The notes under the pieces were generated by a model, which made no database searches, was not told where the DNA came from, and saw nothing but the letters and a program-made list of their open reading frames with translations. This document shows positions 25,968 to 62,666 of a stretch of 64,000 nt of DNA, one piece after another. Location: NCBI GenBank assembly GCA_947564735.1, contig CANOEC010000002.1, positions 124,001 through 188,000 on the forward strand. The letters are read 5' to 3'. The translations under genes and the position numbers were made by a program. How positions within the stretch are numbered: position 1 is the first letter of the stretch; every line of letters begins with the position of its first letter. The stretch comes from an uncultured Lachnospiraceae bacterium. Its GTDB lineage: Bacteria > Bacillota > Clostridia > Lachnospirales > Lachnospiraceae.

Positions 25968-26137
25968 TTACGTTTCCTCCATTTTCTTTACGTTTCATCG
26001 CGAGTTCGCTCGCTTTACTAATTGATTGGGGTAGGTTCTACCCAACCGGATCAGATATCCGATCTTTCCAAACATCATTGTTGGTATCAAAAAGTAATCT
26101 CCCATAGGCTCCGGCATCTATATAAAATAGGCAAGAA

Positions 26138-39890: not shown

Positions 39891-40121
39891 AAAAAAAGTC
39901 GCCTCCTTTTCGCACTTTTGTTTCATAAGTACGACAAGCGGTGACTGTACACTCTCCCGTGTGTGTCCTAAACAAAAGACGTCAACACGTTGTTTCCGGC
40001 TGTACCGGACGTTCTTGCTTGTACAGTGACTTGTCGTCAGTTTCCTAACTTGACATTCGCTCCACGGAAAACCTGCCACGAAGGCAGCAACCTCACGCTT
40101 CATAGCTATCATGCCACAGCA
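39891..40121 (-). ncRNA. Structured S10-operon leader RNA
   Basis: The transcript from the promoter at 40.13 kb has about 230 untranslated nucleotides. The ACGACAAG and CACTGTAC segments of 40021-40038 pair with GTACAGT and CTTGTCGT of 39929-39952, closing a large domain. Inside it is a strong hairpin UCCGG-(5 nt)-CCGGA (39995-40009). The GC-rich stems contrast with the AT-rich flanks. Autoregulation by a ribosomal protein is the expected role, by analogy with S10 leaders elsewhere; which protein binds cannot be told. Confidence 0.65.
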
Positions 40122-54097: not shown

Positions 54098-56926
54098 CTA
54101 TAGCTGCAACCCATACCACTGAATCCGGAAGCCTTCCGGCGTTTTTATCATCAAAATGCTTAAATATGCCACCACATTGTCTTCAGCTTCCGCTAAACCC
54201 GTAAATTCATAATACACATATCCCCTAACGCCTATGTCAATATTCATGCTGGGAATCCCTTCTCCGCCGACATAGGTTTCCTTAATTTTGTCCGCCTGTT
54301 CCGGATACTCATACAGTTCCACGTTTCCTTCAAAATCATCCGACAAAAGCCCGCGCAGCGTCTCCTCGTCATTGGTAAAATATGCCGTCGCAAAAGCACG
54401 TATTGTCTCCTTCATTTCCACAGCGTCCTCACATGGCACACCATCGTTGATACCCTGCATCCCGTTCACCTCCGGGTCAAGACGAAAAGATTCCCGGTTA
54501 TCAAAATACATCCATCCGCCATACACACCGCAATGCCTGTACCAGCCATTATCCCCATACATGCGCACATTCTCCGGAAACCGGTACACCTTCTGCGCCT
54601 CTCCATCCGCTCTTGGAACGCGCACCAGATAACACTCGTCTACACTTCTCTTTTGCATATCTTCCCCAATATGCTTATTCTGTATCATATAGACATAATC
54701 GGCGTCATACGTCACCAGAGAAAGATCTGACCATTCCCTGTCAGCCCTGTCGGTTCTTCTGTAAAACATCTCCTTCTGTTTTGTCTCAAAATCTGCATAC
54801 CATATTTCTCCCGAAATATCGTTATAATAGAGTCCCGTTTCCGTCACCAGCATAGGGATGCCCGTCGTATCACAGAGATACTCATACGTTCCATCCTCGT
54901 TTTCCAGATAAACGCTTCTTAATGACTCGTCCTTATACCGGCTCACAACCTGTCTGCCGTCTAACAGCTTCTTGCACGACGCCACGTCAATGACTGCCTG
55001 ATACATCTGGTCCCGCTCGTTTGCAAGTTCCCAGTATTCTTCCGAATCATATACCGCATTCAGACTCGCAAATTCCATTTCCATATATTCATTGTATTCT
55101 TTATAGAGAAAATACGGATCCCCATCGTCCAACTGACTGACCGCATCACCGTTTTCATCCAATGCATAACCGGTTCGCATTGACGCTGCGCCAAGCGCCA
55201 CATATAAGTTTCCTTCATAAACCGATAGATTGGTAATCAGATAATCCGGCTGCTCCAACTCGAATCCGGCAAGCGCGTCTACCACTTCGTGCGTGTCCAA
55301 ATCCATCCTGTAAACTGTCTCCAAGCTGTTCTTTCCCTCCGGCGCCTGTCCGCTGAAATAGAGATTCTTTCCGTCTAACTCCATTCTGCGTGCGTCTTCA
55401 TATGCATTGGCATAGAGGAGCCGCTCTTCTCCCTGACCGTCTTTCAAATAGTAAATGCCGTCCTTTTTACTCAGATATACATCTCCCTGATAGCCCTTAA
55501 CCACATGATTATAGGCATAATTATAGTCAGCATCCAATTCATCCTGCCCCGACGGGCTTACTTCTATATCATCACTTGTCACACTGCCGTCTTCTGTTTC
55601 GCTGCCCTCAGTATACGGATTTGCATCACCTTGCAATAGTCTGTCTTCCTCTGACAAACCATCGCCGCCAACCGTACCGTTATTTTCTGTTTCTCCCATG
55701 CCGCCGTCACTCTCCTGTTTATATCCGCAGGAGACAACAATACCCAGCAGCAAGACAAGCAGCATTGCAATGACGATACTCAGTCTTCCCTTTTTCTTTG
55801 TGCCTGCATCCAGCATATAGTCGATTCTTGCCTTCATCTGCTTGCGGCTGCCGCCAAAGCTTGTGGAAAACGCAGCCGTCCCTTTCCTATTGCCTGCAAA
55901 CATCAGCATGACTTTCGCATATTTTTCCCGTTCTTCTTCATCTTTGCCTGCAAGGACACTGCCATCGCAGGCAAGCTCCATATCATAGAAAAACTGCTTT
56001 TTCATCAGCCAGACACAAGGGTTGAACCAGTGGAGGCGGCAGACTGCTGCCATCAACATTTTCAGCCAGAGATCCCTTTTGCGGTAGTGGCATAGCTCAT
56101 GCGCTATCACCAGTTCAAGTTCCGTCTTCTTCCACCTGCTCCCGTCTGTGGGAAGCACCAGTTTCGGGCGCAGCAGTCCCATCAGACACGGACTTGCGAC
56201 AGCCCCACTCTGGTACACCATCAGCCGCGCATGCCCGATGGTTCTCTTTTGCAGGATACAGATTCGCTTTACCAGCTGTGCATCTGTCACCGGACGCAGC
56301 CTCTTGCGATACCTATGGAAAACAATCAGATAACTCCCCGCTAAATGCAGAAACCCGATGCCCACTCCTACAAGCCAGATTGTAACAAGAATCCGCGTGT
56401 AGAAATAGGGCGACCGACCCGAACCATCCTTCATCATGCTGTCGTTCCCTACCCTTACCGTTTGCGCATCTCCCATAGCAGCAGTTTCGCCAGTTACCTT
56501 CTGTGCGCCGGGCGTGTTACCCATTCCTGTACTTTCCGCTTGTGCGCCGAGCGTATTGCTTAGTCCTGCACTTTCCGTCTGCACACCGACCATGTTGCCA
56601 GCACCGGCATCTGCCTCCTGCACGCCATCCGTATACATAGCCGCCTGCATACCGTCCACATGCACTTCTGCACCTGCCAAGAGAAAATCCTTTTCCCCCA
56701 TCAAACTTTCCTGCTCAAATCCAGCATAATTAAGCAGCCTGATTTCCGTCCCCGGCAGTGAAAAATTATAGGGAATGAGCAGCCGTACCGCCAGCAATAG
56801 CCAAGCCAGTTTCATCCAACCCGCACCGTACCGTCCGCGCAGCCTGTCCGCAAAGATACAAAGAAAAATAATTGCACCGCCTGCCACAATATTGATTTCC
56901 AGAATATCAAAAAAGATTCCGATCAT
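54098..56926 (-). CDS. BlaR1-type M56 metallopeptidase fused to a sensor-like C-terminal region
   Basis: About 942 residues from the ATG at 56926; the ATG at 56950 is an alternative. Membrane helices near 10-27, 38-53, 178-205 and 383-399. The zinc site is HELCH (276-280) with the third ligand in ELACD (E317). A Gly/Gln/Thr-rich repeat (about 100-148) is inserted in an extracytoplasmic loop. After the last helix come C400, a Gly/Glu linker, a beta-propeller-like DUF5050-type region (about 480-800) with repeated GIYYLKD/NLYFSGQ strands, and an NTF2-like end (about 830-942). The extracellular part is far larger than in BlaR1 and has no penicillin-binding domain. It likely cleaves the co-encoded BlaI repressor upon an extracellular signal. 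Confidence 0.82.
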   Translation of the reverse strand: MIGIFFDILEINIVAGGAIIFLCIFADRLRGRYGAGWMKLAWLLLAVRLLIPYNFSLPGTEIRLLNYAGFEQESLMGEKDFLLAGAEVHVDGMQAAMYTDGVQEADAGAGNMVGVQTESAGLSNTLGAQAESTGMGNTPGAQKVTGETAAMGDAQTVRVGNDSMMKDGSGRSPYFYTRILVTIWLVGVGIGFLHLAGSYLIVFHRYRKRLRPVTDAQLVKRICILQKRTIGHARLMVYQSGAVASPCLMGLLRPKLVLPTDGSRWKKTELELVIAHELCHYRKRDLWLKMLMAAVCRLHWFNPCVWLMKKQFFYDMELACDGSVLAGKDEEEREKYAKVMLMFAGNRKGTAAFSTSFGGSRKQMKARIDYMLDAGTKKKGRLSIVIAMLLVLLLGIVVSCGYKQESDGGMGETENNGTVGGDGLSEEDRLLQGDANPYTEGSETEDGSVTSDDIEVSPSGQDELDADYNYAYNHVVKGYQGDVYLSKKDGIYYLKDGQGEERLLYANAYEDARRMELDGKNLYFSGQAPEGKNSLETVYRMDLDTHEVVDALAGFELEQPDYLITNLSVYEGNLYVALGAASMRTGYALDENGDAVSQLDDGDPYFLYKEYNEYMEMEFASLNAVYDSEEYWELANERDQMYQAVIDVASCKKLLDGRQVVSRYKDESLRSVYLENEDGTYEYLCDTTGIPMLVTETGLYYNDISGEIWYADFETKQKEMFYRRTDRADREWSDLSLVTYDADYVYMIQNKHIGEDMQKRSVDECYLVRVPRADGEAQKVYRFPENVRMYGDNGWYRHCGVYGGWMYFDNRESFRLDPEVNGMQGINDGVPCEDAVEMKETIRAFATAYFTNDEETLRGLLSDDFEGNVELYEYPEQADKIKETYVGGEGIPSMNIDIGVRGYVYYEFTGLAEAEDNVVAYLSILMIKTPEGFRIQWYGLQL

Positions 56927-56974
56927 TTTACTGCATCTCTCCTCCCGCATCAGTGCCTTTTGACGTCATTCACC

Positions 56975-58110: not shown

Positions 58111-58488
58111 TTACTCCCTTGCCCTGCGCTTCTCACTAATGTAGTCTTCTAATTCCTTCAGCTCCTCGTCCGAAAGACTGTTGCCGTCATAGAGCGCGGC
58201 AATAAAATTCTTGGCGGAGTTCTTGTAAATACGTTTTAAGATACTTCTACTCTCCGCCTGCATATAGCTTTCCTTGTCAACCAGCGCAAGATAAACATTG
58301 TTTTTACCGGATTTTTGCACATCAAGAAATCCCTTCTCCTGCAGTCTTGACAGAAATGATAAGATAGTCGTGGGCGAAAGCTTCCGCTCTGCGTCCATGT
58401 GCTCCTCTATCTCAAATCTTGTCACAGGCTTGTCCAACTCCCATATAATCATCATAAGTTCCAGTTCCGAATCCGGTAATCTTTTCAT
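58111..58488 (-). CDS. BlaI/MecI-family transcriptional repressor
   Basis: 125 residues from the ATG at 58488 (GGAGG upstream). The winged helix is read in LPDSELELMMIIWELDKPVT and LSPTTILSFLSRLQEKGFLD, followed by the dimerisation helices. The cleavage-type Asn-Phe context is KNFIAALYDG. It represses its own operon until cleaved through the M56 protein. Confidence 0.93.
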   Translation of the reverse strand: MKRLPDSELELMMIIWELDKPVTRFEIEEHMDAERKLSPTTILSFLSRLQEKGFLDVQKSGKNNVYLALVDKESYMQAESRSILKRIYKNSAKNFIAALYDGNSLSDEELKELEDYISEKRRARE

Positions 58489-58553
58489 CTTTCCTCCACT
58501 TCCGAAGCGTTTTACGCCACACATATCTCAACCCCTGTATCTGCCCAAAGCAC

Positions 58554-58672: not shown

Positions 58673-59905
58673 CTACCCCTTTACTACGCCAACGGTCTTC
58701 AGCTTCCTTAGCGGCGTCACAAGATCTGCCTGCTGCATCATCACTTCATCAATATCCTTATAAGCGAATCTGCACTCCTCGGCAACATCGTTTTTCTTCC
58801 GTTTGCCAAGAATCACGCCCTGCTCCTTCAAATCCACCATGACCTGCTCCGTTGTAAATGCATTCATCGCCCCGGTCCGGGAATAAGCTCTGCCTGCGCC
58901 ATGTGATGAAGTACAGAAAGATTCCGCGTTTCCTTTTCCCTCCACCACATAGCTGTAAGACCCCATAGCTCCCGGTATCACGGCACGCTCTCCAAGTCTT
59001 GCCCGCGTTGCACCCTTCCGGTGTACCCAGACATTGGCGCCGTAATGATTTTCCAAAGCCGCATAATTATGATGGCAGTTAATGCGGTCGATAAAGGAAA
59101 CCCTCCGTCCTGCATATTTTTCTATCTGCTGCCCTACAATAGCGCAGACTGCTTCCATCATATGCTCCCTGTTTTCAAAAGCATAATCCAGCGCAAGGTT
59201 CATCCAGTTCAAATACTGCTGTCCTTCCTTGGTATCCACTGGCAGAAAAGCCAGTCTGTACTCATCCGGTACCTCGCTGCACCATGTCCGGTTCAGTTCC
59301 CTTGCCTTGTTATGAAAATAGTCGCAGATTTCTTTTCCCAAATGTCTGCTGCCCGAATGAATCATAATGCACAGATAGCCTTCCTCATCCTCCTGCAATT
59401 CAATGAAGTGATTGCCTCCTCCCAGCGTTCCCACCTGAAAATATCCTTCCTCAATCAGATGCGTAAGTTCCGGATTTGTCTCGTACCGCTCCATGTTCCC
59501 AAACGCCCTGTCAAGCACCGCCGACGCCTGCTTCTGCCTGTGTTTCTCGAATCCTACGGGAACGGTGCGCATAATATTGCCTATCATGGACTGCATGATG
59601 GAAGCCGTTCCCACCATCACATCCTTAATTTCCTCATATTTGATATCTGTCGCCATAAATATCATCCCGCACCCGATGTCCACGCCGACCGCATTCGGAA
59701 TAATGACATCTTTCGTGGCAATCACACCGCCGATTGGCATCCCTTTCCCCGTATGGGTGTCCGGCATCAGGCACACCCATTTATGAAGAAAGGGAAGATT
59801 TGCTAAATGATAAGCCTGCTCCACACAGGACTCCTCCATCCGGTCGAGCCCGGACAACCATGTCTTTACCGGAAATTTTGTTTTCTCATCATATATTACG
59901 AACAT
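58673..59905 (-). CDS. rtcB: RtcB-family RNA ligase
   Basis: 410 residues from the ATG at 59905; the extension to 59959 is less likely. Metal and nucleotide residues are read as D76 and C79 in GVDIGCG, N165 and H166 in GGGNHFIEL, H183 in IHSGSRH, H279 in CHHNYAALE, and the guanylate-accepting H335 in SSHGAGR. It joins 2',3'-cyclic phosphate or 3'-phosphate ends to 5'-OH ends. No archease or RtcA is next to it. It overlaps the end of the DUF2828 gene by 10 bp, so the two are coupled. RtcB here may repair or circularise the tRNA-like RNAs upstream. Confidence 0.93.
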   Translation of the reverse strand: MFVIYDEKTKFPVKTWLSGLDRMEESCVEQAYHLANLPFLHKWVCLMPDTHTGKGMPIGGVIATKDVIIPNAVGVDIGCGMIFMATDIKYEEIKDVMVGTASIMQSMIGNIMRTVPVGFEKHRQKQASAVLDRAFGNMERYETNPELTHLIEEGYFQVGTLGGGNHFIELQEDEEGYLCIMIHSGSRHLGKEICDYFHNKARELNRTWCSEVPDEYRLAFLPVDTKEGQQYLNWMNLALDYAFENREHMMEAVCAIVGQQIEKYAGRRVSFIDRINCHHNYAALENHYGANVWVHRKGATRARLGERAVIPGAMGSYSYVVEGKGNAESFCTSSHGAGRAYSRTGAMNAFTTEQVMVDLKEQGVILGKRKKNDVAEECRFAYKDIDEVMMQQADLVTPLRKLKTVGVVKG

Positions 59906-61410
59906 AATCTTTCTTCCACCTTTCTGTATCGAGCGCCATCCAGTATCTTCTTTAAGCATTGAAACGGGTCTAACTCATTGGAGAGAACCATCTGACAGAC
60001 TTGGACTGAGAAACCGCTCACCAGTCCCACGCCCAGCTCATTCTCCCGCACCGGAATCACATTCGTCCTGCTGTTCACGTTCCAGAACACCAGCTTCGGC
60101 ATCCGGTAGCCGTATCCCGCAAAGCGTCTCCTGATTGTTCCAAAGAGAGTCTGCATACCGCATCCCCTTACCGCCGCATCAAATTCCATGTCGGATATCA
60201 CAAGAATCGTGCCGGGAAGTTCCTCCTGCCGCAGACGGTTTCTGACCGCTGTCTGCAAAATCAAATCAAAAGTCGCCTCTACATTCGTATTGCTGCAATC
60301 ATTATGCGAAAATGCCAGTTCCAGCTTCTGCCGCAGCGTTTGACACTTCGACAAATCCACATACTTCGGCGTTGCGGAAAAAGTGATGTAACGATTCTTA
60401 TATACGCCGCTCATGCGCTCTGCAAAATAAATCCCCAGCGCATTGGAAACATGTAACGCTGTAATATTGCCGTCCCCCACCGGACACAGCATACTGCCGG
60501 AACCGTCCACCACGCAGAGCACACTGCCTGCCTCCGCTACCGTATCGGGAAGTTTCTTCCACAACGCTTCCAGCGCCGCATCCTCCGCAGAAGTTTCCAT
60601 CCGCCAGCCGTTTCGTACTATATACTGCGCCACAATCTCATGGGGCATAAGCACTCCCGCATGTATTACCGCCTGATTTTTCTGCACCTGCTGCAGATAT
60701 TCCTTCCGGCGTGCCCCATCTCTGTGAAGAAACGCCTTCCGGTACAAAAGATTGGCACGCGATGCAACATGTGTATAGTCAATTTCATCCCATCTGTTGC
60801 TGCTCATGTACACTTCCGTCACATCAGTATACGCTCTTAAGGAAGATAACATTTGTCTGTACTCCTTCGCAGTCATCCCCATAAACTGCTGCAGCTTCGC
60901 CGCATTGCTTCGGGACTCCTTGGAGGAAGTATTGTTGCCAGACATCCACTTCGCACACAGAGAAACCTTTCCCTCATTCTCTCTATTCTCCATATCTTCC
61001 CGAAGCTGCTTTGCCAGTACCGCGAGTGCAGTCTTCTCAAGCGGCGTATCAATCAGGCACAGCAAATCATCGTATCTGCCGTACTCCGCCATAAGCTCCA
61101 CCAGACCGCCCATTATCCCCGGCTCACACTCTGCCAGATAACGGACAATTATGCGAAAGGAACGCCTCTCACCCATGCCGCCCCTTACGTCGCGCAAAAA
61201 GAACAGCCACTTTAACGCGAGGATTCTATCCTCATAAAATGCCGGAATAAATCTTCTGACAATCATCTCCTCGGACATACTCCTAAGCGATGCCGCCGCA
61301 AAATTCAAATCCACCAAAGCCTTGCCCGTGGTTTCGTATCCAGCCGCACCGTTTTCGGTCATCTTCTTATTATCATTTATCGTCTTATGTAATTTTTCCA
61401 TAAAATTCAT
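59896..61410 (-). CDS. DUF2828 / vWA protein, Ro60-like architecture
   Basis: 504 residues from the ATG at 61410 (GGAGG upstream); 61443 is an unlikely earlier start. The N-terminal helical part has LKWLFFLRDVRGGMGERRSF and MAEYGRYDDLL, typical of DUF2828. The C-terminal von Willebrand A domain has an intact MIDAS: DGSGS (302-306), T375 in SNTN, and D407 in VISDMEFD. Ro60 proteins share the plan 'helical RNA-binding ring plus vWA' and bind Y RNAs. Here two tRNA-like RNAs are encoded directly upstream and rtcB directly downstream. A role as an RNA chaperone or quality-control protein is inferred. Confidence 0.8.
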   Translation of the reverse strand: MNFMEKLHKTINDNKKMTENGAAGYETTGKALVDLNFAAASLRSMSEEMIVRRFIPAFYEDRILALKWLFFLRDVRGGMGERRSFRIIVRYLAECEPGIMGGLVELMAEYGRYDDLLCLIDTPLEKTALAVLAKQLREDMENRENEGKVSLCAKWMSGNNTSSKESRSNAAKLQQFMGMTAKEYRQMLSSLRAYTDVTEVYMSSNRWDEIDYTHVASRANLLYRKAFLHRDGARRKEYLQQVQKNQAVIHAGVLMPHEIVAQYIVRNGWRMETSAEDAALEALWKKLPDTVAEAGSVLCVVDGSGSMLCPVGDGNITALHVSNALGIYFAERMSGVYKNRYITFSATPKYVDLSKCQTLRQKLELAFSHNDCSNTNVEATFDLILQTAVRNRLRQEELPGTILVISDMEFDAAVRGCGMQTLFGTIRRRFAGYGYRMPKLVFWNVNSRTNVIPVRENELGVGLVSGFSVQVCQMVLSNELDPFQCLKKILDGARYRKVEERLCS

Positions 61411-61475
61411 CGCGTTTCCTCCTCTTATGATTCCATCGTCCACCCTTTTTACAGAATTGTCACTGTCATTTGCAA

Positions 61476-61567
61476 AGCCTTACCGGGGCAGGATTCGAAC
61501 CTGCATATGCCAATATGTTGATTGCTGTGAAAGTCTTTGCCAAGACTTGTTATTCCACGGTAAGGCT
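61476..61567 (-). ncRNA. tRNA-like RNA 1 (Y-RNA-like candidate)
   Basis: On the minus strand the ends AGCCTTACCG (61558-61567) and CGGTAAGGCT (61476-61485) pair perfectly over 10 bp, extendable to 12 of 13. A perfect T-arm follows the fold: GCAGG-TTCGAAT-CCTGC (61488-61504). There is no D-arm or normal anticodon arm. Instead, a 35-nt core is present that is shared with RNA 2, with the hairpin AAGTCTT-GGCA-AAGACTT. About 92 nt. It is 66 bp upstream of the DUF2828 start with no terminator between, so it is probably processed from the same transcript. Confidence 0.75.
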
Positions 61568-61593
61568 GATATAGACAGAGAAAGTTTCCGAAA

Positions 61594-61715
61594 GCCGCCA
61601 CCCTAGACGGGACTCGAACCCGCGACAACGCACTGAAAAGGTGTTTTGTTTGCTGTAAAAGTCTTTGTCAAGACTTGTAATTCCGCGCTCTACCATCTGA
61701 GCTACTTACGGCGGA
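61594..61715 (-). ncRNA. tRNA-like RNA 2 (Y-RNA-like candidate)
   Basis: On the minus strand CCGCCGT (61708-61714) pairs with GTGGCGG (61595-61601) using two G-U pairs. A canonical D-arm follows, GCTC-AGATGGTA-GAGC, with the invariant GG. The T-arm is GCGGG-TTCGAGT-CCCGT (61607-61623). The anticodon region is replaced by about 60 nt that hold the core shared with RNA 1, with the hairpin AAGTCTT-GACA-AAGACTT. It cannot be a functional tRNA. About 120 nt. A tRNA-like domain with a missing anticodon arm is the hallmark of bacterial YrlA Y RNAs. Confidence 0.75.
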
Positions 61716-61731
61716 GACTTTTGTCGTCTCC
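61713..61731 (-). other. Hairpin at the 5' edge of tRNA-like RNA 2
   Basis: GGAGAC (61713-61718) and GTCTCC (61726-61731) pair around a 7-nt loop. It overlaps the 5' end of RNA 2 by two bases and may compete with, or guide, 5' processing. Confidence 0.45.
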
Positions 61732-61988: not shown

Positions 61989-62666
61989 TTGCTCGATTAC
62001 GAAGAAGATATCAGAAAGTATGCATCGGGTCTTGAGCAGACAAAGATTGTCAGCATTTATCGCAATATTCCGGCGCAGCTGGCAAAAGAAAACAAAAAAT
62101 TCCAGTTTAATAAATTGGGAAAAAACGCCCGTTCCAGAGAATATACCGGATGTATAGAATGGCTGATTGACTCCGGCATTATCAACGCTTGTTACTGCCT
62201 TAACTATCCGGAACTCCCCTTGAAGGGAAATTATGATGCTTCAAAGTTCAAACTATACTATTCCGATACCGGGCTCTTAATTGCCACTTTAGATGAAGAA
62301 GCGCAGGAAGACCTCAGAGCCAATAAGAATCTTGGTATTTATAAAGGTGCGCTTTACGAAAATTTTGTCGCCGAAGCCTTTACCAAACAAGGGCACGGAC
62401 TCTACTATTTCAGCAAAGAAAACTCAACACTGGAAGAAGATTTCTTTGTGCGCTCTCAAAGCGAACTCATTCCCGTAGAAGTCAAAGCGAACAAAAACAG
62501 TTCCAAGTCATTAACCGCGCTGATCAAGAATGAAAATTACAGCGATATCCATCACGGAATCAAACTTGATGCCGGAAATATCGGCTATGCCAATCAAATA
62601 TATACCTTCCCGTATTTTTGTGCCTTTTTGATAAAGCGGTATTTGAGGATACAGTCCGAGATGTAA
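61989..62666 (+). pseudogene. C-terminal part of a DUF4143 AAA-type ATPase, N-terminus missing
   Basis: About 225 residues that match the second half of the AAA_14-DUF4143 proteins: IYRNIPAQLAKENKKFQFNKL, YTGCIEWLIDSGIINACYCL, KLYYSDTGLLIATL, GALYENFVAEAF, and the PD-(D/E)XK-like end PVEVKANKNSSKSL. The ATPase domain with the P-loop (usually about 200 residues) is absent. The only start is a TTG without binding site. The upstream sequence does not contain the missing domain in any frame, so a deletion joined this end to unrelated DNA. Confidence 0.8.

What the first reader, a model, noticed from the sequence alone, without database searches (positions are those of the whole stretch)
58673..61731. 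rtcB-DUF2828 locus with two tRNA-like RNAs: a candidate Ro/Y-RNA-type system on a different vWA protein
Seen: a DUF2828 protein with an intact MIDAS, overlapping rtcB by 10 bp, and directly upstream two RNAs with perfect tRNA T-arms. RNA 2 also has a canonical D-arm. Both lack an anticodon arm. Established: Ro60/Rsr proteins join a helical ring and a vWA domain, bind YrlA RNAs with tRNA-like domains, and are often next to rtcB. Inference: the DUF2828 protein is the Ro60 counterpart and the two RNAs are its guides or gates, and RtcB seals or circularises RNA for this machine. Ro60 itself is absent here, so the set may be a parallel, little-described version.
Basis: partly seen in the sequence, partly recalled or inferred. 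Interest (0 to 1): 0.92.

Follow-up and report, generated by a model that had tools for sequence, protein, structure and literature searches.

The report
Ro60-like protein with tRNA-mimic RNAs
A bacterial gene pair is preceded by two small tRNA-like RNAs; the protein is predicted to have the shape of the human RNA quality-control protein Ro60, and related proteins in bacteria and phages travel with relatives of these RNAs, some of which copy the anticodon loop of real tRNAs, which suggests bait or sensors for enzymes that cut tRNA.

Summary
The core of the finding holds. The DUF2828 protein is predicted to have the Ro60 fold over its full length: all 10 PDB matches with E<=0.001 are Ro60/TROVE. 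Both upstream RNAs are real: each carries a 7-bp hairpin followed by ACAGCAA. A model built from other loci finds exactly those two places in the window. In 99 related genomes it hits 9, all among the 11 with DUF2828, and 0 of 88 without. Viral contigs found by the RNA alone encode DUF2828 in 86 of 117 records; 1.3% of named phage records do.
Corrections: RNA 2 has a 3-bp anticodon-like arm. rtcB is a close neighbour in only 20 of 80 bacterial and 0 of 79 viral loci.
New: the RNAs often display anticodon stem-loops (31 of 99 short units, 4.2 by shuffling).
Best reading: a Ro60/Y-RNA-type RNP on a divergent Ro protein with its own RNA family. The most novel reading not excluded is a decoy or sensor for anticodon nucleases, coupled here to RtcB repair. 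Binding, expression and function are untested.

The parts
61595..61714 (-). RNA 2: tRNA-like RNA; D-arm, hairpin+ACAGCAA inserted in the anticodon stem, 3-bp anticodon-like arm, T-arm, extended acceptor-like stem
61687..61702 (-). RNA 2 D-arm GCUC-AGAUGGUA-GAGC
61650..61676 (-). RNA 2 shared element: 7-bp hairpin AAGUCUU/AAGACUU, UU, ACAGCAA (model hit 61648-61680, 40.1 bits)
61631..61643 (-). RNA 2 anticodon-like arm CAC-CUUUUCA-GUG
61607..61623 (-). RNA 2 T-arm
61478..61565 (-). RNA 1: 88-nt RNA with acceptor-like stem, shared hairpin+ACAGCAA, T-arm; no D-arm or anticodon arm seen
61522..61548 (-). RNA 1 shared element: 7-bp hairpin AAGUCUU/AAGACUU, UC, ACAGCAA (model hit 61520-61552, 41.5 bits)
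61488..61504 (-). RNA 1 T-arm
59896..61410 (-). DUF2828-vWA (DUF7788) protein, predicted Ro60 fold, intact MIDAS
58673..59959 (-). RtcB RNA ligase (likely start ATG at 59905), the only RtcB found in this genome

Best explanation
The locus encodes a Ro60/Y-RNA-type ribonucleoprotein on a divergent Ro protein. Shown by computation: DUF2828 has a predicted helical-ring-plus-vWA fold like Ro60, and most DUF2828 genes examined are accompanied by an RNA family whose constant part is a 7-bp stem (consensus AAGRCRC/GYGYCUUG), two nucleotides and ACAGCAA. Inferred: this constant part is the site that the DUF2828 ring binds, as the basal stem of YrlA binds Rsr. Attached to it is a variable effector part. 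It can be a circularly permuted tRNA-like core as in YrlA, a cloverleaf with the element put into the anticodon arm (the window's RNA 2), a T-arm with acceptor stem only (RNA 1), or just an anticodon-type stem-loop. Inferred: the effector part presents a tRNA mimic to an enzyme that acts on tRNA (a nuclease, or PNPase as in RYPER). In this operon RtcB is the repair partner for cut RNA ends. The two RNAs probably come off the 5' leader of the operon transcript.
Against: No binding, expression or processing data exist here. 31 of 146 loci with enough flank have no strict unit, among them Lachnospiraceae loci L067, L071, L072, L075, L076, L077, L083. The stem sites used for the covariation count had been selected for pairing. 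Four of the nine genomes hit (G013, G023, G031, G045) gave rows to the model, and G000, G001, G042 and G051 are close orthologues of rows; only G081 is distant. The model finds only the permuted form: it misses two DUF2828 genomes among the relatives and three in the phylum sample, which need the open form or variants read by eye. 31 of 117 RNA-first records show no DUF2828, though the records may be fragments. RNA 2 does not fold as a cloverleaf by free energy. Sub-threshold YrlA scores are weak evidence: 32-33 bits occur in ordinary genomes and 7 of 14 control genomes ring. TROVE-linked RNAs of Bacillota have another stem, so RNA recognition, if it exists, has diverged.
Confidence: 0.75

Rival explanations
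1. Decoy or sensor for anticodon nucleases: the RNAs display anticodon stem-loops of several tRNAs on a Ro-like scaffold so that host or phage anticodon nucleases bind or cut them instead of real tRNAs; where present, RtcB reseals the cut RNA.
For: 31 of 99 short units carry a >=5-bp hairpin with a 7-nt loop, U33 and purine 37 (shuffles mean 4.2, max 11 of 200). 110 of 416 sites against 4.6% in plain shuffles. In RNA 2 homologues the arm is nearly constant but the triplet differs: 9 triplets in the 20 of 28 units that have it (U33 was asked for). In print: phage tRNAs proposed to counter anticodon nucleases (PMC10264068, abstract); YrlA suggested as competitive inhibitor of such a nuclease, and the RtcB operon tied to cut tRNAs (PMC7790460, passages).
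Against: 306 of 416 sites have no such arm; RNA 1 has none; the window's own loop CUUUUCA has a non-purine at 37. Within one locus anticodons are not more varied than chance (2 of 60 pairs equal, expected 2.8, P 0.46). No PADLOC family matches either protein at E<=0.01. rtcB is mostly absent.
Confidence: 0.35
2. RNA-decay adaptor as in RYPER: the RNA tethers the DUF2828 ring to PNPase or another exonuclease and shapes its substrate choice.
For: This is the known role of Rsr and Y RNA in Deinococcus (PMC8394870 and PMC7790460, passages); same predicted fold and a similar modular RNA plan here.
Against: Does not explain anticodon-type loops in units with little or no tRNA body. A link to PNPase was not tested: the neighbour clusters were not identified by family search.
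Confidence: 0.3
3. tRNA introns: the hairpin+ACAGCAA insert sits between nt 28 and 29 of tRNAs and is removed, with RtcB as splicing ligase.
For: In many units both flanks of the insert fit a canonical 5-bp anticodon stem and a U33 loop; four units have a 7-of-7 acceptor and an encoded ACCA (L045, L110, L139, L169); RtcB is a tRNA-splicing ligase elsewhere (recalled).
Against: The element also occurs with little or no tRNA around it (99 short units, 14 with TTCRA), around a whole permuted tRNA-like core, in anticodon loops and in RNAs without any anticodon arm (RNA 1); the window's RNA 2 has no canonical acceptor; rtcB usually absent.
Confidence: 0.07
4. Cis-acting leader: DUF2828 binds the two elements in its own 5' leader and regulates the operon; no free RNA is made.
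For: In the window genus the RNAs are directly upstream; no terminator-like site was found between.
Against: In 4 of 6 named phage loci the units lie downstream of the gene, others are kilobases away, and they carry T-arms, acceptors and anticodon loops that a leader does not need.
Confidence: 0.1
5. Decayed ordinary tRNA genes without function.
For: ARAGORN finds no gene, Rfam scores below cut-off.
Against: Conservation with 18 double-change cells against 5.9 shuffled in RNA 2, and co-occurrence with DUF2828.
Confidence: 0.02

Closest known systems
Ro60/Rsr (TROVE-vWA) with bacterial Y RNA YrlA (RF02553), rsr-yrlBA-rtcBA operon
   Same: Predicted full-length Ro60 fold; small RNAs with a protein-side stem and a tRNA-like part joined where the anticodon arm would be; rtcB next door in some genomes; YrlA hits below cut-off at two DUF2828 loci
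   Different: Different Pfam families (DUF2828/DUF7788), no TROVE hit, 12-17% identity; other conserved stem (AAGRCRC-NN-ACAGCAA instead of the TROVE-linked GAGGCGC..UUACUUCG seen by eye in L185, L186, L188); multi-copy arrays in some genomes; anticodon-type loops displayed; no rtcA seen in the printed operon
Phage 'Ro-like RNA binding protein' / PHROG 850 / 'ROT/TROVE' of jumbo phages
   Same: The window protein matches phrog_850 'RNA-binding protein' (E 1.5e-124); a DUF2828 relative in mycobacteriophage Aegeus is annotated Ro-like
   Different: No RNA partner is named in the annotations that I saw; the jumbo-phage review speaks of a tRNA-like partner only for cellular organisms (passages)
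Anticodon-nuclease-evading phage tRNAs
   Same: Phage-borne tRNA features centred on the anticodon loop (PMC10264068, abstract)
   Different: Those are tRNAs; many units here have no complete tRNA body
Intron-containing or permuted tRNA genes
   Same: Insert in the anticodon stem; permuted order in some units
   Different: The element also stands alone; no splice products known

Membership tests
Ro60 (TROVE-vWA) protein | Ro60 fold: helical-repeat ring plus vWA | tested here: met
   predicted model only; ranks 1-10, all E<=1e-3 hits
Ro60 (TROVE-vWA) protein | Pfam TROVE (PF05731) match | tested here: not met
   none for the window protein nor among the 25 of 56 families listed for 68 members; none in the own genome
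Ro60 (TROVE-vWA) protein | MIDAS metal site in the vWA domain | tested here: met
   D301, S303, S305, T374, D406 invariant in 68
Ro60 (TROVE-vWA) protein | binds Y RNA | not testable with these tools
   only co-occurrence
YrlA / bacterial Y RNA | matches RF02553 at gathering score | tested here: not met
   window RNAs: no YrlA hit up to E 10; best elsewhere 45.6 bits against 69 (L011)
YrlA / bacterial Y RNA | basal stem plus tRNA-like domain (D, T, acceptor arms) | tested here: met
   in layout by RNA 2 (permuted relative to YrlA, acceptor not canonical) and by units of L011 and L204 read by eye; RNA 1 lacks the D-arm
YrlA / bacterial Y RNA | gene next to the Ro-type protein gene | tested here: met
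   next to DUF2828, not TROVE
RtcB RNA ligase | Pfam RtcB and conserved metal/nucleophile motifs | tested here: met
   PF01139 E 3.5e-114; DIGCG, GGGNH, HSGSR, HRKG, SHGAGR present (which residues are catalytic is recalled)
functional tRNA | 7-bp acceptor, 5-bp anticodon arm, found by ARAGORN | tested here: not met
   for the window RNAs
tRNA intron | spliced product seen in cells | not testable with these tools
   no RNA data

The most novel reading that the evidence does not exclude
DUF2828 proteins of bacteria and phages are a second, widespread Ro60 lineage whose RNAs form a modular decoy set: a constant Ro-binding stem carries anticodon stem-loops copied from many tRNAs. The set diverts or reports anticodon nucleases in phage-bacterium conflict, and in the bacterial operon RtcB reseals the cut bait or tRNA.
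Probability: 0.35. Interest if true: 0.93.

Novelty: new variant of a known kind. Interest (0 to 1): 0.88.

Why it matters
It links a common, functionally unexplained phage and bacterial protein (682 of 50,697 phage records) to a concrete RNA partner. It gives the Ro/Y-RNA field a second system, present in a coliphage (CL1) that grows on a laboratory E. coli, with a built-in prediction of what the RNAs act on: enzymes that recognise tRNA anticodon arms. It also makes the old question of why Ro-type proteins sit next to RtcB testable.

Tried and rejected
Considered and dropped: ordinary tRNA pair (no ARAGORN gene, acceptor not canonical); known Rfam RNA (only sub-threshold tRNA in the window RNAs; only tRNA at gathering in 10 other loci); a PADLOC defence system (no hit at E<=0.01); rtcB as defining partner; a rule that anticodons in one array differ (not significant); promoter or terminator signals in the leader (1 promoter-like site on the other strand, 0 terminators, not above shuffles).

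Led nowhere or repaired: the output was cut in the middle; the expression matched nothing and was redone; one search counted T-loops as anticodon loops and is replaced; alignment A3 had wrong window coordinates and was replaced by A4 without the window; one search took only 79 of the 119 new stretches (the listing showed 80 rows), and searches added the other 40. D-arm detection is faulty for some rows (chance D-arms far upstream), so its type counts are rough. In some searches the observed sites were de-duplicated and the control sites were not. Burroughs and Aravind 2016 on RNA repair systems (recalled) is not held, so a mention of DUF2828 with RtcB there is not excluded. Paper searches; no held paper has both DUF2828 and RtcB, and the 4 with DUF2828 are on plants by their titles (listing only).
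Full report
WHAT IS THERE. The protein matches PF11443 and PF25043, the ligase PF01139. In the held draft genome (99.5% complete) no TROVE/Ro60 gene and only this one RtcB were found.

THE SHARED RNA ELEMENT. Upstream of DUF2828 genes in the same genus both RNAs recur. I fetched 80 bacterial loci (best of 479 matches) and 80 viral loci (best of 362) by the protein. Around 158 of their ORFs, within 1.5 kb, the word ACAGCAA stands 376 times on the sense strand and 35 times on the antisense strand; the median of all 105 words of the same letters is 33 and 30. The logo of 395 unique sites reads AAAGRCRC-UN-ACAGCAA. The seven bases before it pair with a strand followed by G. Either that strand lies downstream (open form, 7 of 7 pairs plus G: 195 of 395 sites, control words 503 of 6855), or just upstream, closing a hairpin (permuted form, at least 6 of 7 plus G: 92 of 395, control 161 of 6855). 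Both RNAs of the window have the permuted form. At locus level, 54 of 69 bacterial and 61 of 77 viral loci with at least 500 nt on both sides hold a strict unit; 104 control words give 2.5 and 3.3 on average, 11 and 10 at most. The 31 loci without one are listed.

SPECIFICITY. A covariance model of the permuted hairpin, built from 50 sites outside the window (96.3% of cells paired and 112 double-change cells against 32.7 shuffled, with the caveat that sites had been chosen for pairing), finds two places in the window, at 41.5 and 40.1 bits, the next at 13.6. Over 99 related genomes it hits 9, and all 9 are among the 11 genomes in which the protein search found DUF2828; none of the 88 others, some of them incomplete, is hit. 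In G081, where DUF2828 is found only in pieces, the RNA still stands about 225 bp upstream. The two misses, G067 and G085, have open-form units (L010, L011). Four of the nine genomes contributed rows to the model and four more are close orthologues. Over 299 Bacillota genomes the protein occurs in 4 and the model hits only the window's own; the other three have open-form units or variants of the motif by eye. In 56 of the fetched loci the model gives 60 hits at E<=0.01, all on the DUF2828 strand (many are training rows).

RNA-FIRST TEST. One was already held (L139); of the 119 new ones 61 hold DUF2828, on the same strand in 61 of 61 (35 of 79, median distance 188 bp; 26 of 40, 25 to 3284 bp). 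The other 58 stretches lie in 57 records, of which 22 of 43 and 4 of 14 encode it; one of the 4 is the record of L281, already counted. Together that is 86 of 117 distinct records. For comparison, 682 of 50,697 named phage records have DUF2828 (another collection). Many records are fragments, some are related, and some had been found by the protein too. No rtcB was seen in the 119 stretches. In six named phage loci (coliphage CL1, and mycobacterial, Listeria, Staphylococcus, Klebsiella and Enterococcus phages) at least one unit lies near the gene in each, downstream in four; in the mycobacterial phage the open-form unit is a variant, ACAGCGA (no control was run for these six).

tRNA MIMICRY. 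RNA 2 is a cloverleaf in which the element sits between positions 28 and 29 of the anticodon stem. In 19 aligned homologues 99.7% of cells of the proposed pairs are standard, with 18 double-change cells (shuffled 5.9); the number of further pair types is not above shuffles (9 against 9.3), and 13 of 21 pairs never vary. Behind the element follows a 3-bp arm with a 7-nt loop in 20 of 28 units, nearly constant in stem while the three anticodon positions show nine triplets, e.g. UUU 8, GAU 3, GUU 2, GUC 2 (U33 was asked for; column variation). The window's own loop, CUUUUCA, is atypical at position 37. RNA 1 has acceptor-like stem and T-arm only. Elsewhere the element wraps a circularly permuted T-arm/acceptor/D-arm as in YrlA: L011 scores 45.6 bits with the YrlA model (cut-off 69), L208 has 40.1 and 34.3, and coliphage CL1 has such a unit by eye. 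These scores are only suggestive, because 32-33 bits also occur in genomes at large and TROVE loci give 39.9 and 39.8.

ANTICODON STEM-LOOPS. Short open units also hold anticodon-type stem-loops. Of 99 units with at most 55 nt inside (14 of them contain TTCRA), 46 have a hairpin of at least 5 bp with a loop of exactly 7 (shuffled 20.2), while loops of 4, 5, 6, 8 and 9 stay at 18, 25, 18, 21 and 14 (shuffled 22.6, 21.2, 21.7, 20.2, 18.7). With stems of 4 or more, 7-nt loops are again raised (71 against 45.5), and so are 9-nt loops (59 against 40.6), in part because a 7-nt-loop hairpin also counts as one with 9; 23 units have a 9-nt loop that cannot close further. With U33 and purine 37 required and T-loops left out, 31 remain (shuffled mean 4.2, maximum 11 of 200). 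Many loops are those of real tRNAs, e.g. CUUUUAA Lys, CUGUUAA Asn, CUGCUAA Ser (assignment recalled). Over all 416 sites, 110 have such an arm against 4.6% in plain shuffles; C32 in 71 and A38 in 82 of the 110 were not asked for. Anticodons within one locus are not more diverse than chance (2 equal pairs of 60, expected 2.8).

RTCB IS OPTIONAL. rtcB is found somewhere in 21 of 80 bacterial loci: directly downstream in 19, within 1.5 kb in 20; and in none of 79 viral loci. By the lengths printed there, 7 of the 59 bacterial and 4 of the 79 viral loci without it have under 1.5 kb of sequence downstream. It is the largest cluster among the downstream neighbours compared.

MECHANISM. Shown by computation: Ro60-like predicted fold, an RNA family tied to the gene, tRNA-like and anticodon-like parts. 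Inferred: the constant stem is the protein site and the variable part the effector, as in YrlA, where the basal stem tethers Rsr and the tRNA-like domain binds PNPase (PMC8394870, passages). The anticodon loops point to partners that read the anticodon arm. Anticodon nucleases are a good candidate: the related Salmonella operon answers to cut tRNAs, and its authors suggested YrlA as a possible competitive inhibitor of such a nuclease (PMC7790460, passages); phage tRNAs have been proposed to counter anticodon nucleases (PMC10264068, abstract). RtcB would then reseal bait or tRNA. Confidence in the Ro/Y-RNA-type RNP is 0.75, in the decoy function 0.35. The figures overlap, since the decoy and decay rivals are refinements of the main reading.

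COMPARISON. It works like Ro60/YrlA but is not a member by the tests run: no TROVE match, no YrlA match at cut-off, another conserved stem. TROVE-linked RNAs in three Bacillota loci carry a GAGGCGC...UUACUUCG stem instead (by eye; one ACAGCAA stands nearby in L188). The jumbo-phage review names a ROT/TROVE protein with a tRNA-like partner in cellular organisms (PMC7824862, passages). I found no description of this RNA family in the searches listed under Tried and rejected; the 2016 survey of RNA repair systems was not available to me.

Noticed in passing
window 40031-40111(-) and 26021-26068(-): S10-Clostridia and S4-Clostridia ribosomal protein leaders above gathering score.
   Followed up: no
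window 58111-58524(-) and 54098-56950(-): Penicillinase_R (BlaI-type) repressor and a 950-aa protein with an HELCH motif downstream of rtcB, looking like a BlaI/BlaR1-type pair (the pairing is recalled).
   Followed up: no
window 61989-62666(+): DUF4143 protein, perhaps the C-terminal part of an AAA-type ATPase (recalled) whose N-terminus is missing.
   Followed up: no
L206 1454-2005(+): ROOL RNA (87.4 bits, cut-off 99.1) about 1 kb upstream of DUF2828 in a Listeria phage.
   Followed up: no
L047, L050, L051, L114, L115, L158 (+1 gene); L205: A NifS-like cysteine desulfurase (named by eye) follows DUF2828 directly in 6 loci; a band-7-like protein (by eye) is within three genes in 5 loci and is annotated near it in mycobacteriophage L205.
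   Followed up: no
G081:C1:393701-394861: DUF2828 gene found only in pieces, with the RNA element retained upstream.
   Followed up: partly
L067, L071, L072, L075, L076, L077, L083: Lachnospiraceae DUF2828 loci without any strict ACAGCAA unit; either another motif or no RNA.
   Followed up: no
L043 4890-5000, L050 4310-4425: Cys-like units (loop CUGCAAA) in which the element seems to replace the D-arm rather than the anticodon arm.
   Followed up: partly
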